Assembly: GCF_005239225.2 (NCBI RefSeq)
Contig: NC_133295.1
Span: 2,976,001-3,040,000, forward strand
Direction of reading: 5' to 3'
DNA: 64,000 nucleotides
Origin: Populus alba
Taxonomy: Eukaryota > Streptophyta > Magnoliopsida > Malpighiales > Salicaceae
The translations under genes and the position numbers were made by a program. Each line of letters begins with the position of its first letter. Position 1 is the stretch's first letter. The notes below the pieces were generated by a model. It was not told the origin of the DNA. It did not search any database and saw only the letters and a program-made list of their open reading frames with translations. Below, in pieces: positions 1 through 28,339 of this stretch.

Positions 1-3000
1 GTAGCATGCAATAAGAAGTTGAAGCTGATTAAGATTCATATAAATGAGGTTCTTAAAATTTTATAATATTGTTTTCGTATTAATTACAGGTCTTCTTCTT
101 CGTCAAGGTAGCCATCCATGAAGTACTCGTAGACATTAGTCTATTGTAGCAGCATGGATACGCGCCTCGACTGTTGGTTTTTGGTTATATCCACTTTAGT
201 GCTGCAGATAAATATTTGATCTTTTTTCTCATAATAAAAATTTCAAGATCAGACCATTTTAATTTTTACTTTATATATAAGTACATATATAAATAATTGT
301 GTGAATATTGTGTCGGAGTTCAACTAACTGGTACAATAATTACTGAAGATAAGACTGTAATTGTCAATTCTCCATCTCAAGAAATTAAGAAATATTATTG
401 TCCAAGTAAAATGCAAGAAAACTCGAGTTCTTTAAGTCATCTCCATGTTCTTTAACAAATTATTGTACCAGTTTTACTTCAAACCCTAGTTGCAATTGAA
501 ATTGCTAAGCCTTGCAATATTTTTTCAGGTCAAATTCTTACTTGTGCTCAAAGAAATGTTTCTTATAATTCAAAAGATATTTCTATTTGGTAAGTTGCCT
601 CATATTAGATTAGAAACATATTCTTCCTTGCCCCAATTGTTAATTAGTCTCACATTATCTAACATCAAAAATGTTCCCAGACAAGAGATTTTTCTGCTAG
701 CTAGGTACGGTTTAATTAATTCCTCAAAAGCCAAGACAATTCATTGAGGATATCATCTCACGATCAGGAAAAAGAAAATAGTAAGAGATTATGATCTAAG
801 AATGTTTCCATAAAGGCCAAAGTATTTCATTTTCATACAAAAAATAAGTAGGGATGATTGGAAATCAATTTCTCAGAAAAACTAAAAACTCCATATCATG
901 TGTTTGATGAAGGCCGTGTCATCTATAAGTAAAAACATCAATGGAATGTAAATTGTAATAGGTAGGGCAAGTGATGGCAGAGAGCCTGTAAGTGGAAAAG
1001 TTCGAAAAATAACATTAGCGAAAAAGGAAGTGAGAGCACATATTAAAAAGGAAGTGAGAACACAAATTACTCCTTATCTGCTAATGGAGGAGATGGTCTC
1101 ATCTCGCTCCTCCTTGCACCTGGAAATCTGAGTGCAATATTGTTGGTGGTAATTCCAAGCCAACTGAAAGCCATGCACTTCCATGTTCAGTAGCATGCAA
1201 TAAGAAGTTGAAGCTGATTAAGATTCATATAAATGAGGTTCTTAAAATTTTATAATATTGTTTTCGTATTAATTACAGGTCTTCTTCTTCGTCAAGGTAG
1301 CCATCCATGAAGTACTCGTAGACATTAGTCTATTGTAGCAGCATGGATACGCGCCTCGACTGTTGGTTTTTGGTTATATCCACTTTAGTGCTGCAGATAA
1401 ATATTTGATCTTTTTTCTCATAATAAAAAATTTCAAGATCAGACCATTTTAATTTTTACTTTATATATAAGTACATATATAAATAATTGTGTGAAATATT
1501 GTGTCGGAGTTCAACTAACTGGTACAATAATTACTGAAGATAAGACTGTAATTGTCAATTCTCCATCTCAAGAAATTAAGAAATATTATTGTCCAAGTAA
1601 AATGCAAGAAAAACTCGAGTTCTTTAAGTCATCTCCATGTTCTTTAACAAATTATTGTACCAGTTTTACTTCAAACCCTAGTTGCAATTGAAATTGCTAA
1701 GCCTTGCAATATTTTTTCAGGTCAAATTCTTACTTGTGCTCAAAGAAATGTTTCTTATAATTCAAAAGATATTTCTATTTGGTAAGTTGCCTCATATTAG
1801 ATTAGAAACATATTCTTTCCTTGCCCCAATTGTTAATTAGTCTCACATTATCTAACATCAAAAATGTTCCCAGACAAGAGATTTTTCTGCTAGCTAGGTA
1901 CGGTTTAATTAATTCCTCAAAAGCCAAGACAATTTCATTGAGGATATCATCTCACGATCAGGAAAAAGAAAATAGTAAGAGATTATGATCTAAGAATGTT
2001 TCCATAAAGGCCAAAGTATTTCATTTTCATACAAAAAATAAGTAGGGATGATTGGAAATCAATTTCTCAGAAAAACTAAAAACTCCATATCATGTGTTTG
2101 ATGAAGGCCGTGTCATCTATAAGTAAAAACATCAATGGAATGTAAATTGTAATAGGTAGGGCAAGTGATGGCAGAGAGCCTGTAAGTGGAAAAGTTCGAA
2201 AAATAACATTAGCGAAAAAGGAAGTGAGAGCACATATTAAAAAGGAAGTGAGAACACAAATTACTCCTTATCTGCTAATGGAGGAGATGGTCTCATCTCG
2301 CTCCTCCTTGCACCTGGAAATCTGAGTGCAATATTGTTGGTGGTAATTCCAAGCCAACTGAAAGCCATGCACTTCCATGTTCAGTAGCATGCAATAAGAA
2401 GTTGAAGCTGATTAAGATTCATATAAATGAGGTTCTTAAAATTTTATAATATTGTTTTCGTATTAATTACAGGTCTTCTTCTTCGTCAAGGTAGCCATCC
2501 ATGAAGTACTCGTAGACATTAGTCTATTGTAGCAGCATGGATACGCGCCTCGACTGTTGGTTTTTGGTTATATCCACTTTAGTGCTGCAGATAAATATTT
2601 GATCTTTTTTCTCATAATAAAAATTTCAAGATCAGACCATTTTAATTTTTACTTTATATATAAGTACATATATAAATAATTGTGTGAATATTGTGTCGGA
2701 GTTCAACTAACTGGTACAATAATTACTGAAGATAAGACTGTAATTGTCAATTCTCCATCTCAAGAAATTAAGAAATATTATTGTCCAAGTAAAATGCAAG
2801 AAAACTCGAGTTCTTTAAGTCATCTCCATGTTCTTTAACAAATTATTGTACCAGTTTTACTTCAAACCCTAGTTGCAATTGAAATTGCTAAGCCTTGCAA
2901 TATTTTTTCAGGTCAAAATTCTTACTTGTGCTCAAAGAAATGTTTTCTTATAATTCAAAAGATATTTCTATTTGGTAAGTTGCCTCATATTAGATTAGAA

Positions 3001-5961
3001 ACATATTCTTCCTTGCCCCAATTGTTAATTAGTCTCACATTATCTAACATCAAAAATGTTCCCAGACAAGAGATTTTTCTGCTAGCTAGGTACGGTTTAA
3101 TTAATTCCTCAAAAGCCAAGACAATTTCATTGAGGATATCATCTCACGATCAGGAAAAAGAAAATAGTAAGAGATTATGATCTAAGAATGTTTCCATAAA
3201 GGCCAAAGTATTTCATTTTCATACAAAAAATAAGTAGGGATGATTGGAAATCAATTTCTCAGAAAAACTAAAAACTCCATATCATGTGTTTGATGAAGGC
3301 CGTGTCATCTATAAGTAAAACATCAATGGAATGTAAATTGTAATAGGTAGGGCAAGTGATGGCAGAGAGCCTGTAAGTGGAAAAAGTTCGAAAAATAACA
3401 TTAGCGAAAAAGGAAGTGAGAGCACATATTAAAAAAGGAAGTGAGAACACAAATTACTCCTTATCTGCTAATGGAGGAGATGGTCTCATCTCGCTCCTCC
3501 TTGCACCTGGAAATCTGAGTGCAATATTGTTGGTGGTAATTCCAAGCCAACTGAAAGCCATGCACTTCCATGTTCAGTAGCATGCAATAAGAAGTTGAAG
3601 CTGATTAAGATTCATATAAATGAGGTTCTTAAAATTTTATAATATTGTTTTCGTATTAATTACAGGTCTTCTTCTTCGTCAAGGTAGCCATCCATGAAGT
3701 ACTCGTAGACATTAGTCTATTGTAGCAGCATGGATACGCGCCTCGACTGTTGGTTTTTGGTTATATCCACTTTAGTGCTGCAGATAAATATTTGATCTTT
3801 TTTTCTCATAATAAAAAATTTCAAGATCAGACCATTTTAATTTTTACTTTATATATAAGTACATATATAAATAATTGTGTGAATATTGTGTCGGAGTTCA
3901 ACTAACTGGTACAATAATTACTGAAGATAAGACTGTAATTGTCAATTCTCCATCTCAAGAAATTAAGAAATATTATTGTCCAAGTAAAATGCAAGAAAAC
4001 TCGAGTTCTTTAAGTCATCTCCATGTTCTTTAACAAATTATTGTACCAGTTTTACTTCAAACCCTAGTTGCAATTGAAATTGCTAAGCCTTGCAATATTT
4101 TTTCAGGTCAAATTCTTACTTGTGCTCAAAGAAATGTTTCTTATAATTCAAAAGATATTTCTATTTGGTAAGTTGCCTCATATTAGATTAGAAACATATT
4201 CTTCCTTGCCCCAATTGTTAATTAGTCTCACATTATCTAACATCAAAAATGTTCCCAGACAAGAGATTTTTTCTGCTAGCTAGGTACGGTTTAATTAATT
4301 CCTCAAAAGCCAAGACAATTTCATTGAGGATATCATCTCACGATCAGGAAAAAGAAAATAGTAAGAGATTATGATCTAAGAATGTTTCCATAAAGGCCAA
4401 AGTATTTCATTTTCATACAAAAAATAAGTAGGGATGATTGGAAATCAATTTCTCAGAAAAACTAAAAACTCCATATCATGTGTTTGATGAAGGCCGTGTC
4501 ATCTATAAGTAAAACATCAATGGAATGTAAATTGTAATAGGTAGGGCAAGTGATGGCAGAGAGCCTGTAAGTGGAAAAGTTCGAAAAATAACATTAGCGA
4601 AAAAGGAAGTGAGAGCACATATTAAAAAGGAAGTGAGAACACAAATTACTCCTTATCTGCTAATGGAGGAGATGGTCTCATCTCGCTCCTCCTTGCACCT
4701 GGAAATCTGAGTGCAATATTGTTGGTGGTAATTCCAAGCCAACTGAAAGCCATGCACTTCCATGTTCAGTAGCATGCAATAAGAAGTTGAAGCTGATTAA
4801 GATTCATATAAATGAGGTTCTTAAAATTTTATAATATTGTTTTCGTATTAATTACAGGTCTTCTTCTTCGTCAAGGTAGCCATCCATGAAGTACTCGTAG
4901 ACATTAGTCTATTGTAGCAGCATGGATACGCGCCTCGACTGTTGGTTTTTGGTTATATCCACTTTAGTGCTGCAGATAAATATTTGATCTTTTTTCTCAT
5001 AATAAAAATTTCAAGATCAGACCATTTTAATTTTTACTTTATATATAAGTACATATATAAATAATTGTGTGAATATTGTGTCGGAGTTCAACTAACTGGT
5101 ACAATAATTACTGAAGATAAGACTGTAATTGTCAATTCTCCATCTCAAGAAATTAAGAAATATTATTGTCCAAGTAAAATGCAAGAAAACTCGAGTTCTT
5201 TAAGTCATCTCCATGTTCTTTAACAAATTATTGTACCAGTTTTACTTCAAAACCCTAGTTGCAATTGAAATTGCTAAGCCTTGCAATATTTTTTTTCAGG
5301 TCAAATTCTTACTTGTGCTCAAAGAAATGTTTCTTATAATTCAAAAGATATTTCTATTTGGTAAGTTGCCTCATATTAGATTAGAAACATATTCTTCCTT
5401 GCCCCAATTGTTAATTAGTCTCACATTATCTAACATCAAAAATGTTCCCAGACAAGAGATTTTTTCTGCTAGCTAGGTACGGTTTAATTAATTCCTCAAA
5501 AGCCAAGACAATTTCATTGAGGATATCATCTCACGATCAGGAAAAAGAAAATAGTAAGAGATTATGATCTAAGAATGTTTCCATAAAGGCCAAAGTATTT
5601 CATTTTCATACAAAAAATAAGTAGGGATGATTGGAAATCAATTTCTCAGAAAAACTAAAAACTCCATATCATGTGTTTGATGAAGGCCGTGTCATCTATA
5701 AGTAAAACATCAATGGAATGTAAATTGTAATAGGTAGGGCAAGTGATGGCAGAGAGCCTGTAAGTGGAAAAGTTCGAAAAATAACATTAGCGAAAAAGGA
5801 AGTGAGAGCACATATTAAAAAGGAAGTGAGAACACAAATTACTCCTTATCTGCTAATGGAGGAGATGGTCTCATCTCGCTCCTCCTTGCACCTGGAAATC
5901 TGAGTGCAATATTGTTGGTGGTAATTCCAAGCCAACTGAAAGCCATGCACTTCCATGTTCA
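1..5961 (+). repeat. Tandem array, five ~1.19-kb units
   Basis: Five head-to-tail units start at 1, 1190, 2384, 3577 and 4769, with lengths of 1189, 1194, 1193, 1192 and 1193 bp. Each begins with GTAGCATGCAATAAGAAG. The array runs off the left edge, so the true copy number is unknown. Reading the units against each other, I see differences only in homopolymer length (runs of A or T gaining or losing a base) and no clear substitutions. Each unit contains 3' flank sequence of the small membrane-protein gene family found intact at 18495-18728, followed by unrelated AT-rich sequence and then the family's coding 3' half. Short open frames inside the units change from copy to copy with the homopolymer changes, so I do not call them genes. 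Confidence 0.95.
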
Positions 5962-5965
5962 GTAG
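1068..5965 (+). pseudogene. Five truncated copies of the small membrane-protein gene, one per unit
   Basis: Each tandem unit ends with a 41-codon remnant in frame to a TAG: 1068-1193, 2262-2387, 3455-3580, 4647-4772 and 5840-5965. It aligns with the intact protein encoded at 18495-18728. The start (YSL, then the GG-GL-LLLA stretch of the membrane segment) and the end (KAMHF against RAMHF) are shared, while the cysteine-containing middle is replaced. The N-terminal exon part, the start codon and the conserved 5'UTR intron are absent. In unit 3 an upstream ATG at 3377 happens to be in frame, giving 67 residues; in other units a homopolymer change breaks that frame. These are best read as duplicated pseudogene tails, though expression cannot be excluded from sequence. 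Confidence 0.7.
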
Positions 5966-7312
5966 CATGCAATAAGAAGTTGAAGCTGATTAAGATTCAT
6001 ATAAATGAGGTTCTTAAAATTTTATAATATTGTTTTCGTATTAATTACAGGTCTTCTTCTTCGTCAAGGTAGCCATCCATGAAGTACTCGTAGACATTAG
6101 TCTATTGTAGCAGCATGGATACGCGCCTCGACTGTTGGTTTTTGGTTATATCCACTTTATTGCTGCAGATAAATATTTGATCTTTTTTCTCATAATAAAA
6201 ATTTCAAGATCAGACCATTTTAATTTTTACTTTATATTTTTTTTTTTTTGAGAAGTATAATATTGCATTAGAAGACGCCAATAGATGACGGGAACATAGA
6301 GATTCTGTTTACAGCTCACCTAAACAGAACTATGCAATGAAATGAACAACAAACCAAAAAACAAAAAGAACAAATTGCAGCTACAATATACAGAATTGAT
6401 ACCAAAATATCAAAGAAGCAGCTAGGAGATGCAGATTTGAAGCCAACACCAGAATGAGAAGCCAAACAGACTTCTACCGATATCCAAATTAGAAGTAAAA
6501 CAAAAATCTTTCCATCTTGTCTCTTCTAATCCGAAACAAAAAACCAGTCATGGACTCTATATATAATTTTTACTTTATATATAAGTATATATAAATAATT
6601 GTGTGAATATTGTGTCGGAGTTCAATTAACTGGTACAATAATTACTGAAGATAAGACTGTAATTGTCAATTCTCCATCTCAAGAAATTAAGAAATATTAT
6701 TGTCCAAGTAAAATGCAAGAAAACTCGAATTCTTTCAAGTCATCTCCATGTTCTTTAACAAATTATTGTACCAGTTTTACTTCAAACCCTAATTGCAATT
6801 GAAATTGCTAAGCCTTGCAATATTTTTTCAGGTCAAATTCTTACTTGTGCGCAAAGAAATGTTTCTTAATTATAATTCAAAAGATATTTCTATTTGGTAA
6901 GTTGCCTAGTATTAGATTAGAAACATATTCTTCCTTGCCCCAATTGTTAATTAGTCTCACATTATCTAACATAAAAAATGTTCCCAGACAAGAGATTTTT
7001 CTGCTAGGTACGGTTTAATTCCTCAAAAGCCAAGACAATTTCATTGAGGATATCATCTCACGATCAGGAAAAAGAAAATAGTAAGAGATTATCATCTAAG
7101 AATGTTTCCATAAAGGCCAAAGTATTTCATTTTCATACAAAAAATAAGTAGGGATTGGAAATCAATTTCTCAGGAAATCTGAAAATTCCATATCGATCAT
7201 GTGTTAATTTGATGAAAGCCGTGTCAACTATAACATAAATACCGATGAAATGTAAATTGTAATATGATGGCAGAGAGCCTATGAGTGGAACAGTTCGAAA
7301 AAGAACATCAGC
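5962..7312 (+). repeat. Sixth, diverged array unit split by a retroposon
   Basis: This unit follows unit 5 directly and matches it to about 7312, after which similarity ends without a gene remnant. It carries substitutions absent from units 1-5, such as TTATTGCTGCAG near 6160, TGTGCGCAAAG near 6848 and ATCATCTAAG near 7090. The same variants appear in the lone copy at 20204-21024. The unit is therefore probably the older, array-terminal form from which the nearly identical units 1-5 were not directly copied in full. A 326-bp insertion interrupts it at 6238-6563. Confidence 0.85.
6238..6563 (-). mobile_element. Short retroposon (LINE 3' end or SINE-like) with 17-bp TSD
   Basis: A 326-bp segment absent from the other units is flanked by perfect 17-bp direct repeats TAATTTTTACTTTATAT at 6221-6237 and 6564-6580. 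It begins with a poly-T run (6238-6249), so the element is in minus orientation with a 3' poly-A tail. A long variable target duplication and a poly-A tail are hallmarks of target-primed reverse transcription. There is no coding capacity. The reverse-complement end, rich in TTCTGTTT and TTGTTTTTTGG, resembles the 3' ends of 5'-truncated plant LINEs, but a SINE or processed transcript is possible. Confidence 0.82.
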
Positions 7313-7591
7313 AATTGTTTTTCAACAACAGGATATAGCCTAGTAGATTATGTTTGGCCAGGTATCCTCGTCAAATCTTCCTCCCTGGCAGCTGGGCACA
7401 GCGCTCGCCATGGACTTTGTATTGATAAAATCCAGTTACATGCTGCATACTTGACTAATGCGGGGGACAACCTTATAATCGGGTTGATAGGGTAAGAATA
7501 ACATTCATTATCGGGTTGAACTGATTGATTTGGTTTTGACAACCTTATAATTGTTGTTGAAGAAATTAAGTAGCATGACTTAAAAAACTTC

Positions 7592-7829
7592 AATTAAAAT
7601 GGTCTGGTCTCGATGAGAAAACAGACCAAATATTTAACTGCAACAATACAGTAGTAGATATAACTAAAAACCAACTGTCGAGGCGCCCGAGTACTTCATG
7701 GATTGCTACCTTGACGAAGAAGAAGACCTGCAATTAATACGAAAACATTATTGGAATGTGGGTGGAGATGGGTTGCGGTGGCGGTCCGTGGGTTTTGGCT
7801 TTGTTGAGTACAGAGGCATTAATCTTCTA
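7592..7829 (-). repeat. Inverted fragment of the small-gene 3' flank
   Basis: Positions 7592-7754 are the reverse complement of the 3' flank of the gene at 18495-18728 (compare roughly 18795-18960), including the CTCGGGCGCCT-type stretch. Immediately next to it, 7764-7829 matches 19648-19711 in direct orientation. The junction shows that inversion and duplication have both reshaped this family. The minus-strand open frame just left of it (7348-7593) has no recognisable domain and I do not call it. Confidence 0.75.
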
Positions 7830-9157
7830 CTACAAAGAAAAAAAATAGAAACCGCGACCTGGAGGAAGGGAGAGACAGAAGGAGATTAAAATTATCGACC
7901 TTGACTGGTAATTTTCTTTGATTTTCTTAAATGGATCTTTGAATTAATTGTTTATTATTACCTCTATTGGTTGGTTGAAAGGTCCTCCCCGGTGGAGGAG
8001 TGTTGCAGTGATGGGGCATATGCTAATATCTATGTTTTATTAACTGATTGGTTGAATGAAATGAATTGGCAGACTATGGATAGGAGCACGACATGGGAAT
8101 CGAAGCATTGGTAGCCATGCTTATGGATATGATGGATTTAGAGGTGCTCCTCCCCTTCTTTCTTTTTGATTTTTTCAAAGTAAACAAACCAATGATATGC
8201 AATTGCAGAAATTCATTCTAGCGAGAGTGGCCTTCATACTTCTAACCATCGCTTCAAGATATCAATTTCTCCACAAGTTAGGCTGGCTGGGTGTTCATCA
8301 TGGCTGAGTGTTCATCATGGTGCTGAGTGTTCATACTTCTAACCATCGCTTCAAGATATCAATGCTCTCGATCAGTTTTTTATGACCATGAATAACATTA
8401 CCTATCTTTTGCAGGGAAACAGAAGCTGCTGGAGGACTGCACTGCCACGCCAAATCCAAATTGTAGATGCAGCCACTGTTATGGAAATGGATCAAGGGGG
8501 TTTACTTTGGATCCAGGCAACCTTTTAGTTTTTCTGTGTATGAGACATGTAATTGCTTTAAAGGATTTGAAGCAACTCATAAAACTGATTTGTCCAAGTA
8601 AAATGCAAGAAAACACGAGTTCCTTCAAGTCATCTCTATGTTCTTTAACAAATTATGGTGACAGTTTATACCTGACCTAACTCTTTTGAGTTTGATTATG
8701 CGTCAAGCTCAAGTAATTATAAGCAAATGAGATCTAAACATGAAAAAAAATGGTATAAGGTATAATTTCTAAAACAATCTAATAATTAAAAATAAAATTA
8801 AAAAAGAAACTAAATAAAAAAAGGATTGGGTTGTCAAAAGGTGAATTAATAATAATAAAAAAACAAATAAAAGAAAGAAAACACAAAACTCTATTTCAAC
8901 AACTAATTTTTTATGAATGTAACTGCAGCTGTGGTTCTTTTAAAAATCCAGACTTTCCAAATGATTCGTCGCCATGACAAATGCAGTTCTTGAGATCTTG
9001 TGCCATCTTTCCAGCATCTTTGGTGAAGAAATTTACTAATTAATGTACAGAAAATGATAATAAAAACTCCAATATTATTTTCAAAGCTCTTAAAAGAAAA
9101 ACAAAATTGAAATACTAGGGCATATAAAAGAGTTTTATCTTTAGTGTGGTTTAATTT
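7830..9157. other. Non-coding stretch with one family fragment
   Basis: I see no gene here. Positions about 8590-8662 match the array-unit sequence that begins TGTCCAAGTAAAATGCAAG, so a shred of the family reaches this point. A short duplication, TTCATACTTCTAACCATCGCTTCAAGATATCAAT, occurs near 8237 and again near 8330. The rest is AT-rich with no long open frame and no RNA gene that I could recognise. Confidence 0.5.
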
Positions 9158-9310
9158 CTAAAAGGTCAAAGGAAGCCTAACTGGGAGAAGGGAGGAGAGA
9201 GTAAAAAAACAAGGAAAGGGGAAGAGAGAGAGAGAAGAGTAGAAAAATGAGAAATGAGAGAAAAGGCCCAACCAAGCCCAATGCATGAGGAAAATAAAAC
9301 GACAACCAAT
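9158..9310 (+). repeat. Polypurine (GA/GGGA-rich) segment, copy A
   Basis: The plus strand is nearly all A and G over 9184-9280, with GAGAGAGAGAG runs. It ends in a conserved tail CCCAATGCATGAGGAAAATA. The segment is homologous to 21118-21265, which keeps the same order and tail. The minus-strand open frame across it is a low-complexity artefact. Confidence 0.7.
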
Positions 9311-9349
9311 CCCAACCAAAAAGCCCATTGATCCATTTTGTGTCAGCAA

Positions 9350-9960
9350 CGGTTCAAGGCACGATTAAGATCACTGCAAGTTATCGTTGTAACATCTAAC
9401 TAAAAGTCTGGTTTTACAAGTTAATTCGGTGGACATCTCTGTAAAAAATTATTATAAGAAAAATTAATGGAAAAATTTGTCTTGATGAAAAAATTATAAT
9501 TTTATAGATTTAAAGTTTAAACAATAACTTATGATATTATAGTTAATAAATAAGGATTTGGTTTTTTAAGTTTATTTATTTATTGTTAAATTGATAAAAA
9601 AAAATCAAATAGAATTGCATATTTGTTAGATATCCACTAGATGAAAAAGTCAGGACAAGAGCTGATTACGTTGTTGTTTAAGATTTATTTCTTTTAGAAT
9701 TGTATTTAAAAGTGATTTTTTAAAAATTTAATTTTTTAAAACAGCATTAAGAATGTTAATTAAATACACAACAAATTAAAATATTGTGTTTTGGTAAATT
9801 TTTAAATCCAATCCTCGTAAAAGTCTTACTTTTAAACTCTTGAGGTTAAAAAAAAACACGGTCTTGCAAACTTCTTCTTTGAATGTATTTTTTTTTTTAA
9901 AAAATTAAGTGTATGTTTTAGATATGCACACAAAGAAGGAGGGTTTTTTGACTGATTTTT
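9350..9960 (+). repeat. AT-rich duplicated block, copy A
   Basis: Positions about 9460-9960 recur at about 11029-11520 with small differences (shared start TTAATGGAAAAATTTGTCTT). The first 100 bp (9350-9450, GGTTCAAGGCACG) recur at about 15188-15290. Positions 9995-10085 match 16065-16160. The three matches in different places show that several segments have been duplicated independently. No coding sequence is visible. Confidence 0.75.
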
Positions 9961-10104
9961 TTTTTTTGCGCTAATAGTAGTTGTCTTCTTTTTAGTATTT
10001 AATAGAGAAAAAGGAAGAGATGTTTTTATAAGTTTAGAGGTGCAAGATAGAATTTCATGAGGGTTTATGGTGAGCTTATCTTCTCTATATGACACTTTTA
10101 GATT

Positions 10105-12100: not shown

Positions 12101-12549
12101 TTTTTTTTTTTAAAAAATTAACTTGATAGTTTTTGTTTGTTTAAATATGAGAATCCTATTTTATCCAGAAAGAATTCTGACAACGCATTGGCTACTCCTT
12201 GATTTTGAAAATTAAAACATAATTATATTGATCTCAAATGATAAAGGCCTGAGGGATCATATTTGACAAACAAAATATTTCAAGGATTGAAAAAGATGAA
12301 TGGGAGGCACTCATCGTGTTTAGGCGGTGCGTAAATAACTACATGATATTTAAATAAAAAACATTCTAAATTAAAAACTTCTTATGCGAGTTGACAAGCC
12401 TAATTTCTTGAAACAAATAAGGAAAGAAGGAAGAAAAAAACACATACAAAACCAAAGATGGCTCACTCAGTACATATTGTGTTCTCTCAGTATATTAGTT
12501 TAACTCCACCACAAAATTCACACCATCATTTATTTATATACAAAGTACA

Positions 12550-12706
12550 AATTAAAATGGTCTGATTCTGCAACAATACAGTAGATATAACTAAAAAGGA
12601 GCAGTCGAGGCTTATTGGATTGCTGCAATTAATACAAAAACAATATTGGAAGATTAAGAAAATCTCATTTGTATGAATCTTAATTAGCTTCAACTTCTTG
12701 TTACAT
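12550..12706 (-). repeat. Second inverted fragment of the small-gene 3' flank
   Basis: Reverse complement of the region that follows the stop codon of the small membrane-protein gene (compare 18735-18960), ending in the reverse of the TAATAAGAAGTTGAAGC motif. Parts are deleted relative to the copy at 7592-7754. Confidence 0.7.
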
Positions 12707-12756
12707 GGTATGGTACCTTCTTATTCCCTGGCATGGACGCTTGTTTTTTTCATTTC

Positions 12757-16902: not shown

Positions 16903-17050
16903 TCTGAAACCACTTACTAATGTTCGTTTTGAACTTTTCCACCTAGAGGCTGCCTTTGCCATCATTTGCCTGCATTTTACAATGTACATCCCATTGATAT
17001 TTATCTTATTGATGAAATACGGAGTTTCATCAAACATTCGAAATGGAAAT
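16903..17050 (-). repeat. Inverted array-unit fragment
   Basis: Reverse complement of the unit part around 3270-3410, recognisable by CATTGATATTTATCTTATTG and by TTTCATCAAACATTCGAAATGG on the plus strand. It is diverged from the array copies. Confidence 0.65.
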
Positions 17051-17094
17051 TTTTTTTTCTTAGTTTTTTTTAAAAACATTTTTTACGGTGCATT

Positions 17095-18347: not shown

Positions 18348-18408
18348 CTACTTAAACACCACCATCTCCATATTCACAAACCCTATACTCACTGTCTTCT
18401 AATACTTG

Positions 18409-18485
18409 GTAATGTTATCAATACTATCTATTTCTAATCTTACTTCGAACATTACTCATTGTTTTCTAATTATTCCTTTTTGTAG
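18409..18485 (+). other. Conserved 5'UTR intron of the small membrane-protein gene
   Basis: A GT at 18409 (TTG|GTAATG) and an AG at 18484-18485 (TTTTTGTAG) delimit a 77-bp T-rich intron ending nine bases before the ATG. The sister copy has the same arrangement at 27296-27379 with the same TTCCTTTTTGTAG acceptor. Conservation of both splice sites in two diverged copies is the main support. Confidence 0.6.
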
Positions 18486-18494
18486 TTTGGAGTT

Positions 18495-18728
18495 ATGAAA
18501 TATGCCAACTTCTCCCCCCCTCCTGCACAACAGTACTACTCGGCCAGCGGAGGCTACTCCTTAGCTGTTAAAGGAGGAGCTGGTCTCCTCTTGCTCCTCC
18601 TTGCTATCTTAGTTTATATACTCATGAGAGGCCGCTGCAGCTGTACAACCGAGTGTAATGGTGGTGCTGATTCCAGTCAGGCCAGTGGAGGGACTCCGAG
18701 AGCCATGCACTTCATTGCTAGGGAATAA
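18495..18728 (+). CDS. Small single-pass membrane protein, unknown family (77 aa)
   Basis: I do not recognise this family. The protein has a short polar N-terminus with a PPPAQQYY stretch, a glycine-flanked hydrophobic segment at about residues 28-45 (GGAGLLLLLLAILVYILM), then a basic RGRC turn with three cysteines (CSC and a later C), and a Ser/Gly-rich tail ending RAMHFIARE. There is no cleavable signal peptide, so one internal membrane anchor is likely. The start is supported by the sister copy, where the ATG has the same spacing to the 5'UTR intron acceptor. A possible 3'UTR intron (GT at about 18731 to AG at about 18825) follows the stop. The gene is the only intact member seen; five array tails, a one-stop sister copy and several fragments are its relatives. 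Its core promoter appears altered by the GC-rich insert ending at 18347. Confidence 0.6.
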   Translation: MKYANFSPPPAQQYYSASGGYSLAVKGGAGLLLLLLAILVYILMRGRCSCTTECNGGADSSQASGGTPRAMHFIARE

Positions 18729-19720
18729 GTAGGTATCATGTAATAAGAAGTTAAAGCTGCTTAAGATTCATACAATGAGATTCTTAGAATTTCCCAATAT
18801 TGTTTAATTTCGTATTAATTGCAGGTCGTCTTCTTCGTCAAGTTAGCCATCCATGAAGTGCTCGGGCGCCTCAACTGTTGGTTTTTGGTTTATATCTATT
18901 GTATTGCTGCAAATAAATATTTGGTCTGCTTTCTCATTCGAGATCAGACCATTTTAATTTGTACTTTATATATGTGTGTGTGTGTTGGTGTGAATTTTGT
19001 GTTGGAGTTAGACTATATAATATCTACAATTAAAATCGTAAGGAATTGTGGGCTTTTTCTTGAATTCTTTTGTTCTACTATACTAATTGGAGTGGGTTTT
19101 TCTATTATCAATTTACTGCTACTTTTTATTTTTTTGGGGGGTTTAGCAAGGGTACGTTTCTTTTTAGCTGGGGCTTGATTTAGGAGCTTTCTATTTTTAA
19201 CGAAAAGAAAGTCGTCCATAAAACAATCACTCACCATGCACAGCAGTCACAGCCAAACTCTTTGTTAAATCGATATCGCAGATCCGACTTTCGGTGCGTT
19301 GAGTGTCAGATCGGTGCCAACTCCATCTCCTCTGCACGTTGATGAGGGCGGTCTTTCTCGCCACTATCCAGTCTTTCTGCCTTCTGTTGCTTTCACTTTT
19401 GTTTTCGCGGGCCTTCCGCCGCTGGTGGAGTTACTAGCGGCGTGGGCCTGGACGTACGGTTGCGTTGGCTGTCGTGATCGCTTGAGTCTGCCGGTGTTTT
19501 CGCTTTTCGTGTTCTTTTTTTTTTTTGCTCCTGGCAGCTGGATCGTTTCTTTGTTGACGGCTATGCCGTGGTTTCTACTTTTATTAGTAACTGGTTCCAT
19601 GGTCGTGTTTTTTTTTTTCTCGAGAGAGAGAGGTGAGAACTGCAAGGGGAGATGGGTTGCGGTGGTGGTCCGTGGGTTTTTGCTTTGTTGAGTACATAGG
19701 CATTAATCTTCTTTAGGAAA
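18729..19720 (+). other. 3' flank of the small gene, shared with other copies
   Basis: Parts recur in the array units (TTCTTCTTCGTCAAG region), as inverted copies at 7592-7754 and 12550-12706, and after the sister copy (ATCGATCGCAGATCCGACT at about 27836 matching 19268). A GC-rich stretch at 19290-19690 is open on both strands but has no recognisable domain. It aligns in part with the 157-bp repeats at 27861-28339, so I read it as non-coding flank. Confidence 0.55.
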
Positions 19721-19919
19721 ACAAAATTTGATTTTTTGTTCGATCTTTTGGTGAAAAACCGAATTCCTTTTTTCTAATATAAAAAATGTTTTTATGATTT
19801 TTGGTTCCTTGAACTCCATTTTTTGTCCCTGTCAGGAGATGTGAGGTGAGGTGTGATCAGAGTGCATTTCGGGGTTTTGAGTGATAATTCTATGGTTTTT
19901 TTTTTTTTTCCTTTTTTGA

Positions 19920-20200
19920 ATATAGGATTTTCAAGAGCCTGAAGTTTACTCGACTGAGATCGCAGACTTGCTGATTATGGCATGGACAATTCTGGACAGA
20001 AATACTCGACTACTTCAGGCTATATATATTCTGTGCTTCTTCTTCTTGTTTCCAAGAGAAAAGATAGCAAACAAGATCTTTGGCCGATGTTGCTGGGGCA
20101 TCCATTATTTTTCTCTTCTTTCTGGATTCATGTTGACAGATTGTGCAATAAAACACGCAATGCAATAAAATACGTATCACCTATGGTTTGAAGAAAATTA
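19920..20200 (+). other. Possible degenerate exon of another small gene
   Basis: An ATG at 19982 opens 69 codons beginning MDNSGQKYSTTSGYIYS. An alternative frame from 19968 is also open. Part of this stretch (20010-20145) is duplicated at 13157-13260 without a conserved frame, so coding is doubtful. No domain is recognised. Confidence 0.25.
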
Positions 20201-20203
20201 CCC

Positions 20204-21024
20204 AGCGAAAAAGGAAGTGAGAACACATGTTACTCCTTAGCTCCTAAAGGAGGAGACGGTCTCATCTCGCTCCTCCTTGCACCTGGAAATCTGATCAGTG
20301 CAATATATATTGTTGGTGGTGATTCCAAGCCCCAATAGAGGAACTCTGAAAGCCATGCACTTCCATGTTCAGAAATAAGCATGTAATTAATAAGAAGTTG
20401 AAGCTGATTAAGATTCATACAAATTAATATCCACTTTATTGCTGCAGATAAATATTTGATCTTTTTTCTCATAATAAAAATTTCAAGATCAGACCATTTT
20501 AATTTTTACTTATATATAAATAATTGTGTGCATATTGTGTCGGAGTTCAACTAACTGGTACAATAATTACTGAAGATAAGACTGTAATTGTCAATTCTCC
20601 ATCTCAAGAAATTAAGAAATATTATTGTCCAATGCAAGAAAACTCGAGTTCTTTCAAGTCATCTCCATGTTCTTTAACAAATTATTGTACCAGTTTTACT
20701 TCAAACCCTAGTTGCAATTGAAATTGCTAAGCCGTGCAATATTTTTTCAGGTCAAATTCTTACTTGTGCGCAAAGAAATGTTTCTTATAATTCAAAAGAT
20801 ATTTCTATTTGGTAAGTTGCCCCATATTAGATTAGAAACATATTCTTCCGTGCCCTAATTGTGAATTAGTCTCACATTATCTAACATAAAAAATGTTCCC
20901 AGACAAAAGATTTTTCTGCTAGCTAGGTACGGTTTAATTAATTCCTCAAAAGCCAAGACAATTTCATTGAGGATATCATCTCACGATCAGGAAAAAGAAA
21001 ATAGTAAGAGATTATCATCTAAGA
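20204..21024 (+). repeat. Lone partial copy of the array unit
   Basis: Begins with the pre-gene sequence GCGAAAAAGGAAGTGAGAACAC and the coding tail (YSLAPKGGDGLISLLLAPG in frame before breaking), then continues with the unit's start from about 20380. About 150 bp between the TTCATACAAAT and ATCCACTTTATTGC parts are missing. It shares diagnostic variants with unit 6 and not with units 1-5. It shows that the repeated segment exists as a single dispersed copy outside the array. Confidence 0.8.
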
Positions 21025-21117
21025 CTGTACCATTAATTCGGTATTACAATATGTACTGAGTGAGCCATCTTTGGTTTTGTTTTGTTTTTTTTTTCATAAG
21101 ACTGGCGCTGATTTCTC

Positions 21118-21290
21118 AAAAGTCATAGGAAGCCAAACTGGGAGGAGGGAGGAGAAAAAAGAAAAGAAAAGAAAAGGGGAGGATAAAGAGAAAGAGAAAA
21201 AGAAATGGGAAAGGAAAAAAATGAGAAAGGAGAAAAAAGTCCCAATGCATGAGGAAAATAAAAGGTGGAATTTAAAAAAAAAAAAAAGAG
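21118..21290 (+). repeat. Polypurine segment, copy B
   Basis: Almost pure A/G on the plus strand from about 21140 to 21240, followed by CCCAATGCATGAGGAAAATA, matching 9158-9310. Frames on either strand are composition artefacts. Confidence 0.7.
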
Positions 21291-21299
21291 ATGCGGAAT

Positions 21300-22261
21300 T
21301 TTTTTGATTTTGTTTTTGGAAAATTGAGGTTTACTCTGCATTGAATTGATCCCAGCCACAACTTAAAATATATATATACAGGCTTTGTATGACAAAAAAA
21401 AAACTACTAAAATAGATATGAGATCAAATACACTATTAAATAATTTTGTGTTGTGGTACATAGCTTCTTTTTTTTTTTTTTAATCGTAGAGAAATAATTG
21501 TTTGATTATAAAAATAAATTCTACCTTTTACACTAAGTTTCGTTTTAAATCTTAATTTTGTAGTGCTAAAATACTATACTTTTCATCATTTATTTTACGT
21601 AGGTCAATTCTTACCAGAGAAATTGAAATTGATATTGACTGTTCAAACCCCAAAACTAGCCAAGCAAGATAAGAAGAAACCGTAAAAGAAAATATATATG
21701 GATTTATGTTATACGGTAGCATGGCTGATGTTTATCATATTTAGTTTCACTCTTTTTTTTTTCTTTTAATTATCTTGCCTTTTGACACTAGTCATATACA
21801 TGATTTATGAGATTACGTACAAAGATTATAATTAATAAGTTACAAACACAATGTTTCCAAATATTACAAAATAATAATAATAATAATAAGGCAATGATAC
21901 AAATCAAGATTAAGTTACTATAACAGTTTTCTTGTTGTTTTTTTTTTTTCATTAACCATTTGATCTCTAATTTAATCACTGGTAATCCAATTTAAAATTC
22001 CCACTGATTTTAAGGTGGTTTATTTATGTCATTGTGTTTTTTTTTAAATTAAATTTTATTTATTTTAAATTATTATTTTTATATACTAATATAAAAAAAT
22101 AAAAATAAAAATATTATTTTAATAATTTTTTTAAAAAACAACGCAACGAATAACTCTACCGTAATCCATGAAATTCCCAAAAGCAGCATGGACCATCCAA
22201 TTTTTCCGTCTCCCTTACCCCTACTGTCAAAAATAAATATGTAATCCCTCTCTCTCTCCTA
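21300..22261. other. Intergenic, no gene seen
   Basis: AT-rich sequence with homopolymers, a TAA/AAT run near 21870-21890 and a MITE-like AT patch at 22020-22145. A 63-codon minus-strand frame is low complexity. Confidence 0.5.
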
Positions 22262-22266
22262 GTCTA

Positions 22267-22431
22267 TGTTAAATAATATTTATGTAGTCTTATTTATTAA
22301 GGGTAGAATAGTATTTTCAGTTTAACCTATATATATTTTATTTGTATTTAGGTTAAAACTATGCATTCATAATATACCGATTATTCAGAATTCTAGCCTC
22401 CTTTTTATGTTTGATCTCAATTAGTTTAACA
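22267..22431 (+). repeat. Copia-1 5' LTR
   Basis: Starts TGTTAAATAATATTTATGT and ends AGTTTAACA directly before the PBS. The paired LTR at 26930-27093 matches over its whole length. Confidence 0.95.
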
Positions 22432-22443
22432 TGGTATCAGAGC
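22432..22443 (+). other. Copia-1 primer binding site (initiator tRNA-Met)
   Basis: TGGTATCAGAGC immediately follows the 5' LTR. It is the standard plant Copia site complementary to the 3' end of initiator methionine tRNA. Confidence 0.93.
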
Positions 22444-22772
22444 TGGTTTTATGGAACGAGGCTTAATCTAAAATACCTAGGCTTAATCTCCTAGGCTTTT
22501 TTTTTTTTTTGGAGTGATATTTTGTCTTCCGCTTCTGTAAAATTAGGTATTTCGACAGTTTCTGCAATTATTTTGATATTTCGATAATTTCTGCAATTAT
22601 TTTGGTATATCCCTTCAGCTTCTGCAATTTGGTATTTGCGTTCAGTTTTTGCAAATTTGTTTTGTGTTTTGGGAGTAATTGTATAATTTCGAGAAGATAT
22701 TTGTTTAGTTTTTGCAATTTAGTATTTTGTCTTCAGCTGCTTTTGCATTCTGGTTATCTGTGATTGTTGATT

Positions 22773-23732
22773 ATGGCCACTGAAATAGATGATTCGCTTC
22801 AGTCTGTGAGTGTGAGGTTGGATGGGAAGAACTATTCATATTGGAGTTATGTAATGAGAAATTTTCTTAAGGGTAAGAAGATGTGGGGGTATGTTAGTGG
22901 TACTTATATGATACCTAAGAACATTGAGGAGGGGGATGCTGGTTTGATAGATACATGAGAAGCAAATAATGCAAATATCATTACTTGGATCAACAATTCT
23001 GTTGAGCATTCAATAGGTACGCAGTTGGTGAAATATGAGACAACAAAAGAGGCTTGAGATCATCTGGAAAGGTTGTTCACACAATCAAATTTTGCAAAAC
23101 AGTATCAATTAGAGAATGACATACAAGCTCTTCATTAAAAAAATATAAGTATTCAAGAGTTTTATTCTGCTATGACAGATCTTTAGGATCAATTGGCTCT
23201 TACAGAATTGGCATAATTAAAGGCATGTGGTGCCTATATTGAGCGTAGAGAGCAGCAAAGATTGGTACAGTTTTTAACAGCATTTCGCAGTGATTTTGAA
23301 GGACTTAGAGGTTCAATTCTGCATCGTTCTCCACTGCCTTCTGTTTACTCTATTGTCAATGAGTTATTGGCTGAAGAAATACGTTTTCAGTCTTATTCTG
23401 AAAAAGGAATTCTTTCTGCTTCAAATCCTTTTGTACTAGCAGTACCTTCTAGGCCATTCTCTAATCATCAGAACAAGTCTCACACAAGGGTTGGCTTCGA
23501 TGAGTGCAGTTTCTGTAAGCAGAAAGGTCATTGGAAGGCTCAGTATCCTAAGTTGAGACATCAGAATCAAGCTTGGAAGCCTGGTAATCAGTCACAATCT
23601 AATGCTCATAGACCACCTCAGGGTTATAAACCACCACACTATAATACAGCAGCAGTAGCTTCCCCAAGCTCTATTACTGATCCTAATATTTTAGCTGAGC
23701 AATTTCAGAAGTTTCTCTCCTTGCAACCATAA
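22773..23732 (+). pseudogene. Copia-1 gag remnant
   Basis: The reading starts at ATG 22773 with a typical Copia Gag N-terminus (VRLDGKNYSYWSYVMRNFL) and runs into TGA at 22956. Further stops follow before an open part at 23262-23732. The zinc knuckle at 23505-23546 reads C-X2-C-X4-H-X4-Y: the last cysteine codon has become TAT (23544-23546), so zinc binding would be lost. Gag would package the element's RNA in cytoplasmic particles if functional; this copy is not. Confidence 0.85.
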
Positions 23733-23735
23733 GCA

Positions 23736-26700
23736 ATGTTCGCTGCTTTTTCCATAGGTCAGTTGCCTCATAGTTCCTCAGGTATGTCACACTCTGAATG
23801 GGTCTTGGATTCTGGTGCTTCCCATCATATGTCTCCAGATTCCTCATCTTTTATCTCTGTATCCCCTTTGTCCTCCATGCCTATTATGACTGCTGATGGC
23901 ACTCCTATACCTTTAGCAGGTGTTAGTTATGTTGTCACACCTCACTTATCTCTACCTAATGTTTATCTTATTCCAAAACTCAAATTAAATCTTGCGTCTG
24001 TTGGTCAAATATGTGATTCTGGTGATTATTTAGTCATATTTTCTGGTTCTTTTTGTTGTGTACAGGATCTGCAGTCTTAGAAGCTGATTGGGACAAGCCG
24101 TAGGGAGAATGGACTATATATTTTGGATGAGTTAAAAGTGTCAGTTGCTGCTACTACTACCGTTGATTTGTCTTCCTTTCATTTGAGTCTTTCATCTTCT
24201 AGTTTTTATTTATGGCATTCCCGTCTAGGTCATGTTTCGTCTTCTCGTTTGAGATTTTTGGCATCCACAGGAGCTTTAGGAAATTTGAAAACTTGTGACA
24301 TTTCTAATTGTAGTGGATATAAATTGACAAAATTTTCCGCCTTACCTTTTAATCAAAGTATTTATGTTTCTTTTCACCATTTGATTTGATTCATTCTGAT
24401 GTATAGGGACCTTCTCTTGTTGCCACAAAAGGAGGGTCTCAATATTATGTCTTTTTTATTGATGATCATACTCGTTATTGTTGGGTTTATTTAATGAAAA
24501 ATCATTCTAAATTCTTTGAGATATATGTAGCTTTTCGAGCTTTTATCAAAACTCAATATTCTGCTGTGATCAAATGCTTTAGTTGTGATTTGGGTGGGGA
24601 ATACACCTCTAATAAATTTTGCCAATTGCTTCCCTAGATGGAACCATCCACCAAACTTCATGTACAGATACTCATGAACAAAATGGTGTTGCTGAAAGAA
24701 AACATAGGCATATTGTCAAAACTGTTCGTTCTCTTTTGTTGTCTGCTTTTGTTCCTAGTGAGTTTTGGGGAGAAACTGTTCTTACTGCTGTAAGTTTGAT
24801 TAATACGATTCCATCTTCTCATAATTTGGGTATATCTCATTTTGAAAAGTTATATGGGTATGTCCCTGATTATTCATTATTTAAAGTCTTTGGTTGTAAT
24901 TGTTTCGTTCTTCGTCCTCATGTAGAACGTAGTAAGCTATCCTCAATCTGCTATTTGTGTCTTTCTGGGTTATGGTGAAGGTAAAAAGGGTTATCGTTGT
25001 TTTGATCTCATAACTCAGAAACTTTATGTGTCTCGTCATGTTGTCTTCCTTAAGCATATATCTTTCTTTTCTATTTCATCCACTACTCACAGCTTGACTA
25101 AATCTGATCTTATTAGTATAAATCCATTTTCTAAGGATTCTGATAATGATATCTCTCCCAATGTTCGATCAATTTGTACTCATAACTCTGTAGGTACTGG
25201 TACTTTACTCCCTGGCACATCTGAAGCTCCATTCTCATCTACAGCCCCTCAAACTTCATCTTAGATTGTGGATCCACCTCCACGTCAGTCCATTCGTATT
25301 CGTAAGTCTACAAAACTACCAGATTTTGCTTATTCTTGTTATTCTTCATCATTTACTTCCTTTTTAGCCTATATTCATTGTCTTGTTGAGCCCTCTTCCT
25401 ATAAAGAGGCAATTCTTGATCCGCTTTGGCAGCAAGCTATGGATTAGGAACTTTCTGCTTTGCATAAGACAAATACTTGGGATCTGGTTCCTCTACCTCC
25501 TGGTAAGAGTGTTGTTGGTTGTCATTGGGTGTATAAGATCAAGACTAATTCTGATGGGTCTATTGAGCGATACAAAGCTAGGTTGGTTGCAAAAGTATAC
25601 TCTCAATATTATGGTATGGACTATGAGGAGACATTTGCCCCGGTTGCAAAAATGACTATTATTCGTACTCTTATTGTCGTAGCTTTGATTCGTCAGTGAT
25701 ATATTTCTCAGCTTGATGTTAAAAATGCCTTATTGAATGGAGATCTTCAAGAAGAAGTTTATATGGCACCCCCTCCTGGTATTTCACATGACTCTGGATA
25801 TGTTTGTAAGCTTAAGAAAGTATTATATGGTCTCAAACAAGCACCCCGTGCTTGGTTTGAGAAATTCTCTATTGTGATCTCGTCTCTTGGCTTTGTTTCT
25901 AGCAGTCATGATTCTGCTCTTTTTATTAAGTGCACTGATGCAGGTCGTATCATTCTGTCTTTATATGTTGATGACATGATTATTACTGGTGATGACATTA
26001 ATGATATTTCAGTTTTGAAGACAGAGTTGGCTAGACGATTTGAAATGAAGGATTTAGGTTATCTTCGATATTTCCTGGGTATTGAGGTAGCATACTCACC
26101 TAGAGGTTACCTTCTTTCTTAGTCGAAATATATTGCAGATATTCTTGAGCGAGCTAGACTTACCGATAACAAGACTATAGATACTCCTATTGAGGTTAAT
26201 GCAAGGTACTCTTCTTCTGATGGTTTACCTTTGATAGATCCTACTTTATACTGCACTATTGTTGGGAGTTTGGTATATCTCACCATCACTCGTCCAGATA
26301 TTGCATATGTTATTCATGTTGTTAGTTAGTTTGTTGCTTCTCCTACTACTGTTCACTGGGCAGCTGTTCTTCGTATTTTACGATATCTTCGGGTAACAGT
26401 TTTAAGAGCCTTTTACTTTCATCCACCTCTTTCTTGGGATTGCGTGCATACTCTGATGTTAATCATGGTAGTGATCCCACAGATCGCAAGTCTATTACCA
26501 GGTTTTGTATCTTTTTAGGTGATTCTCTTATTTCTTGGAAGAGCAAAAAACAATTTATTATTTCTCAATCATCCACTGAAGTAGAATATCGTGTCATGGC
26601 ATTTACTATCAAAGAAATTATTTGGTTACGTTGGTTACTTACTGATATGTGAGTTTCCTTTTCTCATCCTACTCCTATGTATTGTGACAACCAGAGTTCT

Positions 26701-26916
26701 ATTCAGATTGCCCACAACTCGGTTTTTCATGAGCGGACTAAGCACATTGAGATCGATTGTCATTTTACTCGTCATCATCTCAAGCATGGAACCATTACTT
26801 TGCCTTTTGTTCCTTCTTCCTTGCAGATTGCAGATTTCTTTACCAACGCGCATTCCATCTCTTGTTTTTGTTTTCTAGTTGACAAACTCTCGATGCTTGT
26901 AGCTGCCGTATCGTGA
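23736..26916 (+). pseudogene. Copia-1 pol remnant (PR-INT-RT-RNaseH)
   Basis: The protease motif LDSGASHHM lies near 23802-23828. The GAG-pre-integrase motif (LWHSRLGH) lies near 24210-24235, and the integrase core with EQNGVAERKHRHI near 24675-24715. Reverse transcriptase covers about 25383-26122, with NGDLQEEVYM and the catalytic YVDD at 25964-25975. RNase H covers about 26434-26916 (GSDPTDRKSITRF, then SSTEVEYR). Stops separate the open parts, for example near 24078, 24387, 25262, 25446, 25697 and 26120. A frameshift is present around 24955-24985. All domains are present in order, so this is an intact-length but mutated copy. Confidence 0.93.
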
Positions 26917-26920
26917 GTTT

Positions 26921-26929
26921 GAGGGGAGA
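26921..26929 (+). other. Copia-1 polypurine tract
   Basis: GAGGGGAGA lies directly before the 3' LTR, the expected site for plus-strand priming. Confidence 0.9.
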
Positions 26930-27093
26930 TGTTAAATAATATTTATGTAGTCTTATTTATCAAGGGTAGAATAGTATTTTCAGTTTAACCTATATATACT
27001 TTATTTGTATTTAGGTTAAAACTATGCATTCATAATATACAGATTATTTAGAATTCTAACTCTTTTTTGTGTTTGATCTCAATTAGTTTAACA
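26930..27093 (+). repeat. Copia-1 3' LTR
   Basis: Matches the 5' LTR end to end and ends in AGTTTAACA before the GTCTA target duplication. Confidence 0.95.
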
Positions 27094-27215
27094 GTCTATA
27101 AATATTTTCCTTAATGATCCTTGGGTACATCTTCTGATTGGATTAACTTTATCATGTTTAATTTCAAAAAAATAAACACGCCTTATCTTTAGTGTTCGCC
27201 TCTCTCCTCTCCTCT

Positions 27216-27223
27216 TATATAAA
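27216..27223 (+). promoter_or_regulatory. TATA box of the sister small gene
   Basis: TATATAAA lies 173 bp before the ATG and upstream of the conserved 5'UTR intron (27296-27379). The corresponding place before the intact gene at 18495 reads CTACTTAAACACC, so the box is degenerate there. Confidence 0.55.
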
Positions 27224-27388
27224 TTTCCAGTTTCCTTTCGTCACCCTCCATAAACCCTTTCTCTTCTCTCCTCTTGTGTTTCTTCCTCAAATTTGGTACT
27301 ATTGTCAATGCGATCTCTTTCTAATCTCACTTAAGACATTACTGATTTTTTTTCTCTAAATAATCATTCCTTTTTGTAGTTTTGAGCC

Positions 27389-27613
27389 ATGTATGATTAC
27401 ACTCTGCACCCCCCTGCACAAGACTTGGCCACATGAGGCTACTCCTCAGCTGCTAAAGGAGGACTTGCTGGTGTCCTCATCATGCTCCTTGCTATCATAG
27501 TTTATGTATTCTTCAAGCGCCAAAACTGCCTCGAGGAGGTCGACCGCGGGAAGGTTCAGGTGATCAATATTGTTGAAATGGGAGAAAGAAGTGTCCATGC
27601 TGGGAATAAGTAG
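27389..27613 (+). pseudogene. Sister copy of the small membrane-protein gene with one stop codon
   Basis: Aligned with the gene at 18495-18728, this copy has the same start context, the 5'UTR intron, a glycine-flanked hydrophobic segment (AGVLIMLLAIIVYVFF) and a basic, cysteine-bearing turn. The frame stays open over 74 codons to TAG at 27611-27613 except for TGA at 27434-27436, where the intact gene has GGA (Gly). One substitution would account for this. The tail differs, with an acidic/basic EEVDRGKVQV stretch. The retained frame after the stop suggests recent loss, stop readthrough, or a sequence error. Flanking sequence downstream matches the intact gene's 3' flank. Confidence 0.65.
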
Positions 27614-27860
27614 GTAGCATGTAATATGAAGTTGAAGCTGATATGCAATAAGACTGTTGCTTTTTGGTTGTATTGTTGCAGACAAAAACTTAATCTGTTC
27701 TCTCATAATATAAATCTCAGGATTAGACCATTTTAATTTGTACTTTATGTGCCAATTAAAATCGTCAATTTTGAGTGTTTTTCTATTATCAATTTACTGC
27801 GTTGCTTGTGCATGTCACAACCAAACTCTTTGTTAAATCGATCGCAGATCCGACTCTATG

Positions 27861-28339
27861 TCAACCGATGGTGTTTCGGTGGATGTGTTAGTAACTGGTT
27901 CAATGGTTGTGTTAGTGTTGGCATACCATTGTTCAACGGTTGTTTTTTTATTTTTTATTTTTCTCTTGAAAGAGAGGTGAGAATTGCCCGAATTATACAA
28001 AATAATATAAATCATATGAACCGATGATGTTATGTGGATGTGTTGGTAATTGGTTTAATGGTTGTGTTAGTGTTGGGCATACCATTATTCAACGGTTTTG
28101 TTTTATTTTTCCTCTTGAGAAAGAGGTGAGAATTTCCCGAATTCTCTAAATTATTAAAGAATAATATAAATTATATCAATCGATAGTGTTTTCGATGAAT
28201 GTGTTTGTAACTAGTTCAATGGTTGTGTTAGTGTTGGGCATACCATTGTTGATCAATGGTTGTGGTTTTTTTTTTTTTTTAAAGAGAGATGAGAATTGCC
28301 CGAATCTTTCAAATTATTAGAGAATAATATAAATTATAT
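27861..28339 (+). repeat. ~157-bp tandem repeat, three units
   Basis: Units at 27861-28016, 28017-28175 and 28176-28339 each begin with a TCAACCGATGGTGTT-like sequence, contain GGTTGTGTTAGTGTTGG and GAGGTGAGAATT-like motifs, and end near AATATAAATTATAT. The first unit matches the 3' flank of the intact small gene around 19570-19650. Confidence 0.85.

What the first reader, a model, noticed from the sequence alone, without database searches (positions are those of the whole stretch)
1..28339. A locally expanding family of small single-pass membrane proteins
One intact 77-residue gene (18495), one copy with a single stop (27389), five array tails, a lone partial copy (20204) and inverted flank fragments (7592, 12550, 16903) share coding and flanking sequence. 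The two complete copies keep a 5'UTR intron and a glycine-flanked membrane segment but differ strongly in the cysteine-bearing tail. Conserved gene form with a fast-changing tail is what one sees in lineage-specific secreted or membrane peptides under changing selection. I know no named family that fits.
Basis: partly seen in the sequence, partly recalled or inferred. Interest (0 to 1): 0.8.

Follow-up and report, generated by a model that had tools for sequence, protein, structure and literature searches.

The report
Poplar family of tiny membrane proteins
The stretch holds one intact and one broken member of a small, apparently unnamed family of tiny one-helix membrane proteins found in poplars and a willow, whose copies share a front half but carry different tail ends that seem to have been swapped between copies.

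Summary
The window lies in a 416-Mb poplar assembly, most likely Populus alba. 18495-18728 is an intact 77-codon gene with a predicted 5'UTR intron; 27389-27613 is a paralogue with one TGA. Genome-wide searches find 14 full-length copies, 12 of them open: 12 copies on C12 and 2 on C15, in syntenic blocks. Relatives with a named source are 21 Populus proteins and one Salix; no Pfam family fits.

Members share a short PPAQ...KGG head, one membrane segment and a basic, cysteine-bearing juxtamembrane point. Tails fall into about five types. A tail changing fast by substitution is not supported: within types the tail rate is not significantly above the head rate.

"Local expansion" needs care. The array tails and the 20204 copy are dead fragments, and the two C12 clusters are collinear copies of one block whose similarity stops at an assembly gap, so they may be two haplotypes. 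I infer N-out/C-in membrane adaptors with exchangeable cytosolic tails; expression and function are untested.

The parts
18495..18728 (+). Intact A-type gene, 77 aa plus stop
   Evidence: relatives
18409..18485 (+). Predicted 5'UTR intron (77 nt, GT...AG) of the A-type gene
   Evidence: same kind of interval in 12 of 14 copies, both C15 copies included; no transcript
27389..27613 (+). B-type copy with one TGA at codon 16
27296..27379 (+). Predicted 5'UTR intron (84 nt, GT...AG) of the B-type copy
1..6237 (+). Tandem array, five complete units of about 1193 bp and the start of a sixth; each complete unit holds a D-like gene tail fragment
6564..7312 (+). Rest of the sixth array unit, 91.5% identical, after an inserted stretch
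20208..20424 (+). Lone partial D-like fragment without start
7592..7754 (-). Inverted fragment of the 3' flank
   Evidence: 86.9% to 18794-18959
12495..12733 (-). Inverted fragments of the 3' flank, in pieces
16917..17063 (-). Inverted fragment of the array unit (unit bases 877-1023)

Best explanation
A small gene family found so far only in Populus and Salix. Each complete gene has a short predicted 5'UTR intron and encodes 62-77 residues (in this genome): a PPAQ...GYS..KGG-like head, one membrane segment, a basic and cysteine-bearing juxtamembrane point, and 18-30 further residues. Shown: open frames in 12 of 14 copies, a syntenic position on C12 and C15, two deep head groups, about five tail types, and a pair of copies nearly identical outside the tail with different tails. 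Inferred: the protein sits N-out/C-in by the positive-inside rule; the cysteine may be S-acylated and the glycine-flanked helix may pack against another membrane protein; the cytosolic tail is an interaction module, and gene conversion or unequal exchange swaps tails between copies, so one anchor serves several tails. The window holds one live A-type copy, one B-type copy with a stop, and dead D-like debris amplified in a young array.
For: Family and spread. Open frames. Intron sites in 12 of 14 copies. Synteny. Head ratio 0.41-0.69 in five C12-C15 pairs. Hydropathy and charge. Exchange: c12_3240 agrees with c12_2952 at 68 of 74 informative sites outside one tail segment and with W27389 at 33 of 34 inside it, 0 of 2000 permutations as strong; intron 0/86 and 3' flank 6/113 differences between those two; P0013 and P0046 share an unusual head but carry B and C tails.
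Against: Purifying selection is weak: the upper bootstrap bound of the head ratio is below 1 in only two of five C12-C15 pairs, and the pooled within-type head ratio is 0.64 with range 0.40-1.12. Many C12 pairs lie near or above 1 in the rougher count. One of four triplets shows no exchange (p=0.37), and one of the three strong ones re-uses the same copies. The head tree has few resolved forks. The structure model is of low confidence (mean pLDDT 55.2). No expression, topology or binding data.
Confidence: 0.5

Rival explanations
1. The two C12 clusters are the two haplotypes of one cluster, kept side by side by the assembler; the real copy number is about six per haplotype on C12, and the tail difference between c12_2952 and c12_3240 is allelic. 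This changes the count and the meaning of 'expansion', not the existence of the family.
For: C12:3214001-3280728 is collinear with C12:2918789-3018411, 96.4% on the left flank and 95.3% over window 33175-41811; the similarity runs to window 42411, beside the N run 42413-42912. Both flanking genes are doubled on C12 and single in the C15 block. Window 52800-53500, beyond the gap, matches C12:2656310 and 2610008 at 99%.
Against: Substitutions of 2.9-5.0% in four of five large flanking blocks and 10.7% in a fifth are high for alleles of one species (recalled expectation). A 10-kb stretch at the place predicted by a fixed offset did not match. Three further copies of window 52800-53500, not one, lie on C12.
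Confidence: 0.6
2. The copies are drifting, non-functional orphan sequence: duplicates of a minor gene that are mostly on the way out.
For: Two of 14 full-length copies are broken, two lack the intron, fragments abound, and ratios near 1 are common.
Against: Twelve of 14 frames are open despite strong divergence; head ratio 0.41-0.69 between C12 and C15; conserved position, intron sites and tail types across named Populus species and a Salix protein of the same head group.
Confidence: 0.25
3. The protein is a precursor of a secreted or shed peptide, with the tail or head released outside the cell.
For: Small size, lineage restriction and tandem copies resemble known plant peptide families.
Against: Hydrophobic segment starts at residue 19-28 and is followed, not preceded, by K/R in 59 of 60 proteins, which places the tail inside. 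No cleavage predictor was run.
Confidence: 0.1
4. The repeats are the internal part of a transposable element.
For: Many copies and inverted fragments, and a copia-like element lies between two of the copies.
Against: Queries place full-length copies at only 14 places in two syntenic blocks; the copia-like element has its own LTRs and target-site duplication and ends before the 27389 copy; Pfam scans found no transposon family above cut-off in the family.
Confidence: 0.03

Closest known systems
Poplar small secreted proteins (Plett and others 2017, PMC5428498; passages seen)
   Same: Small, and some expanded in the Populus lineage
   Different: Those carry a secretion signal; this family has an internal membrane segment and a basic flank after it. 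I did not compare sequences with that set.
CYSTM proteins (cysteine-rich transmembrane module; recalled, and an abstract seen)
   Same: Small membrane proteins with cysteines at the membrane
   Different: CYSTM is not among the families listed in the Pfam scans; here usually one juxtamembrane cysteine and the helix is mid-protein
FXYD regulators of animal sodium pumps
   Same: Size and layout: one helix, basic inner flank; weak chance-level match (E 0.6)
   Different: Only one of 26 members matches the profile, at E 0.19, below cut-off; plants lack the partner pump (recalled)

Membership tests
CYSTM | Match to the CYSTM profile | tested here: not met
   Not among families listed for P0001, P0011, P0008, P0010 and 26 aligned members
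FXYD | Match to the FXYD profile above cut-off | tested here: not met
   1 of 26 members, E 0.19; PDB match E 0.6
Poplar small secreted proteins | N-terminal secretion signal | tested here: inconclusive
   Position and charge argue against it; no signal-peptide predictor was run
Transposon-internal sequence | Dispersed copies with element ends or element domains | tested here: not met
   14 full-length places, two syntenic blocks; no element family in Pfam scans
The family proposed here | Head, one hydrophobic segment, basic flank and juxtamembrane cysteine | tested here: met
   60 rows chosen: 59 of 60 for charge, 60 of 60 for a cysteine from two residues before to eight after the segment's end; P0057, which lacks it, was left out beforehand, as were fragments and fused gene models
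Expressed protein-coding gene | Transcript and peptide | not testable with these tools
   No transcript or proteome collection was available

The most novel reading that the evidence does not exclude
One conserved membrane anchor with a pool of interchangeable cytosolic tails, swapped between copies or alleles under diversifying selection: a plant recognition, decoy or signalling system that changes its binding end by cassette exchange. In the A-type pair, amino-acid-changing sites differ more (18.0/168.5) than 5' leader and 3' flank (67/1558): p=0.001, or 0.03 without four changes private to one copy. This is one pair of five, singled out after looking.
Probability: 0.12. Interest if true: 0.75.

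Novelty: new member of a known kind. Interest (0 to 1): 0.42.

Why it matters
A gene family that annotation partly misses: none of the nine relatives of the intact copy bears a D5086 tag, the tag of what I take to be this assembly, though five other members do. Poplar and willow are model trees, and a small anchor with exchangeable tails is simple to test by tagging. The case also shows that copy counts at such loci depend on whether an assembly collapsed the two haplotypes.

Tried and rejected
A transposon origin, a secreted peptide, CYSTM or FXYD membership and a receptor-kinase fragment were considered. The last is disfavoured because whole-genome translated searches at E up to 0.1 returned only family copies.

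A first dN/dS count on the multiple alignment suggested faster tails (Fisher p=0.005). Gap placement inflated it; with pairwise codon alignment the contrast is not significant (p=0.27), and I dropped the claim. In one search the codons after ERSV were dropped from the W27389/c12_3240 pair because of a frame shift; five pairs were picked by me out of 78. The frame-shifted copy c12_3244 was left out of all codon counts, and W27389's TGA was masked in them.

The structure model was too weak for a fold search, and none was run. Pfam scans of five gene models that run into the shared downstream stretch found nothing above cut-off, and one PDB search was empty. A search for the parent of that downstream stretch and a genome search with P0012 or P0053 did not complete. 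Eight paper searches did not turn up the family (listings and starts of abstracts only), and one paper was seen in passages; that does not show absence from print. The first two intron scripts missed acceptors and were redone; one script mis-set two starts and was redone; one tree script failed and was rerun without P0057.

Full report
What is there. The window is C12:2976001-3040000 of an assembly of 416,350,149 bases in 96 contigs. C12 is 15,352,202 bases long, the length of the contig that carries the Populus alba proteins D5086_022933, 022934, 022942, 022943 and 022945, and two of these match C12 copies at 100%: P0045 over its first 67 residues at 3229281 and P0047 over its whole length at the copy that starts at 3256511. 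I take the window to be Populus alba; this is an inference. The frame at 18495-18728 is intact; the copy at 27389-27613 has one TGA. P0043, a gene model from another poplar assembly, reads in a shifted frame through what looks like the same stop (my reading).

The family. P0001 finds 9 proteins at E up to 1; the 27389 copy, read with TGA as W, finds 33 at E up to 10; an alignment of 26 relatives finds 61 at E up to 10, of which I count 22 with an organism name, 21 Populus and 1 Salix dunnii. No Pfam family passes its cut-off in the members scanned. In the own genome three queries return 10, 14 and 14 matches, all within the same 14 places, 12 on C12 and 2 on C15. Of these 14 copies 12 have open frames; W27389 has the TGA and c12_3244 has lost 10 bases near its start. 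Twelve of 14 have a GT...AG interval of 77-94 nt just before the start codon; c12_3246 and c12_3257 do not.

Synteny. A left neighbour at C15:6632256-6634406 matches C12:2921370-2923465 in order, and a 60-residue piece of it is found at C15, twice on C12 and, at 80-81%, on C4 and C17. A right neighbour lies at C12:3005918, C12:3268440 and C15:6669903. The family thus sits in the same block on C12 and C15, as expected from the Salicaceae genome duplication (recalled). The C15 copies and the Salix protein form one branch in a head tree (SH-aLRT 85).

Anatomy. In 60 chosen rows the most hydrophobic 19-mer starts at residue 19-28; 59 of 60 have more K/R in the eight residues after it than before it; all 60 have a Cys from two residues before to eight after its end (P0057 without that Cys was left out). 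The model has one helix, 29-50, with mean pLDDT 55.2, so it adds little.

Tails. I set five tail types by pattern; A, B, C and D each recur among relatives. The contrast between 18495 (A) and 27389 (B) is therefore one between types. The best evidence for exchange is c12_3240 and c12_2952: intron 0/86, head 6/141, tail 27/63 and 3' flank 6/113 differences. Of informative sites, 68 of 74 outside one segment join c12_3240 to c12_2952 and 33 of 34 inside it join c12_3240 to W27389; 0 of 2000 permutations were as strong. Four triplets were tested: three were strong, one not (p=0.37), and they share copies. Tails of different types align poorly, which sharpens the contrast. A second case is P0013 and P0046, with near-identical unusual heads and B and C tails. 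On the head tree the labels need 8 changes where 4 is the least, but few forks are resolved.

Rates. In five within-type pairs chosen by me, the head has N 38.5/523.0 and S 19.5/170.0 (ratio 0.64, bootstrap 0.40-1.12) and the tail N 26.0/266.2 and S 6.0/72.8 (ratio 1.19, 0.56-3.90); tail exceeds head in 0.89 of bootstraps, and the nonsynonymous rates do not differ (Fisher p=0.27). An earlier alignment gave p=0.005 and is superseded. Between C12 and C15 the head ratio is 0.41-0.69 in five pairs, with the upper bound below 1 in two. Many C12 pairs are near or above 1. In the A-type pair nonsynonymous sites differ more than flanks (18.0/168.5 against 67/1558, p=0.001; 0.03 without four changes private to c12_3261): a lead, from one pair.

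The repeats. The array has period about 1193 bp, five complete units at 99.2-99.6% to the reference unit, a sixth that breaks at 6237 and resumes at 6564-7312, and a unit end of 173 bases left of the window. Its gene fragments and that at 20208-20424 lack a start and read like the D-type copy c12_3246. So the array is young amplification of dead sequence.

Two clusters or two haplotypes. C12:3214001-3280728 is collinear, with breaks, with C12:2918789-3018411: 96.4% over 6 kb on the left, 95.3% over window 33175-41811, ending at window 42411 beside the N run 42413-42912. Substitutions are 2.9-5.0% in four flanking blocks and 10.7% in a fifth. Window 52800-53500, beyond the gap, matches C12:2656310 and 2610008 at 99% and 2552585 at 96%, but a 10-kb stretch at a fixed-offset place did not match. 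Two haplotypes kept in the assembly fit best; a segmental duplication is not excluded. Independently, one contig of another poplar carries eight members (NC652 tags ending 121, 123, 126, 134, 135, 136, 139, 145).

Judgement. The family is real and, in the searches made, unnamed. The reading as membrane adaptors with exchangeable cytosolic tails is my best guess and is untested.

Noticed in passing
window 22267-27093: Copia-like LTR element with LTRs 95.2% identical and a GTCTA duplication at both ends, inserted about 120 bases upstream of a TATA-like box of the 27389 copy; type named from recall.
   Followed up: partly
window 6238-6563: Inserted stretch starting with a T run and flanked by a direct repeat of about 16 bases inside the sixth array unit, like a short LINE or SINE insertion (reading).
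   Followed up: no
window 42413-42912: Run of 500 N where the similarity between two blocks of C12 ends, as at a junction of an uncollapsed haplotype.
   Followed up: partly
window 7764-8324 and downstream of several family copies on C12: A shared stretch with a peptide-like fragment (ADYGKEQDMGIEALEAMLMD) travels with the copies and is joined to them in gene models such as D5086_022942 and U7DVT3; I recall a likeness to RWD-domain proteins, but Pfam found nothing.
   Followed up: partly
window 18409-18485 and 27296-27379: The predicted 5'UTR intron stays alignable between C12 and C15 (23/77 differences for c12_3229 against c15_6642) while the 3' flank does not (75/142), which may mark a regulatory element.
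   Followed up: no
C12:2951844-2952254 (L041): The tail of copy c12_2952 is followed by near-perfect repeats of its own end, a possible source of new tail ends.
   Followed up: no
P0010: An A-type protein whose end runs into sequence like that at window 20190-20237, so tandem joining can make new tails.
   Followed up: no
window 34835-37221: Pieces of a gene that look like a plastid sigma factor (my reading, no family search).
   Followed up: no
window 61938-64000: A 145-bp tandem pair and a repeat of about 0.9 kb, 90% identical.
   Followed up: no
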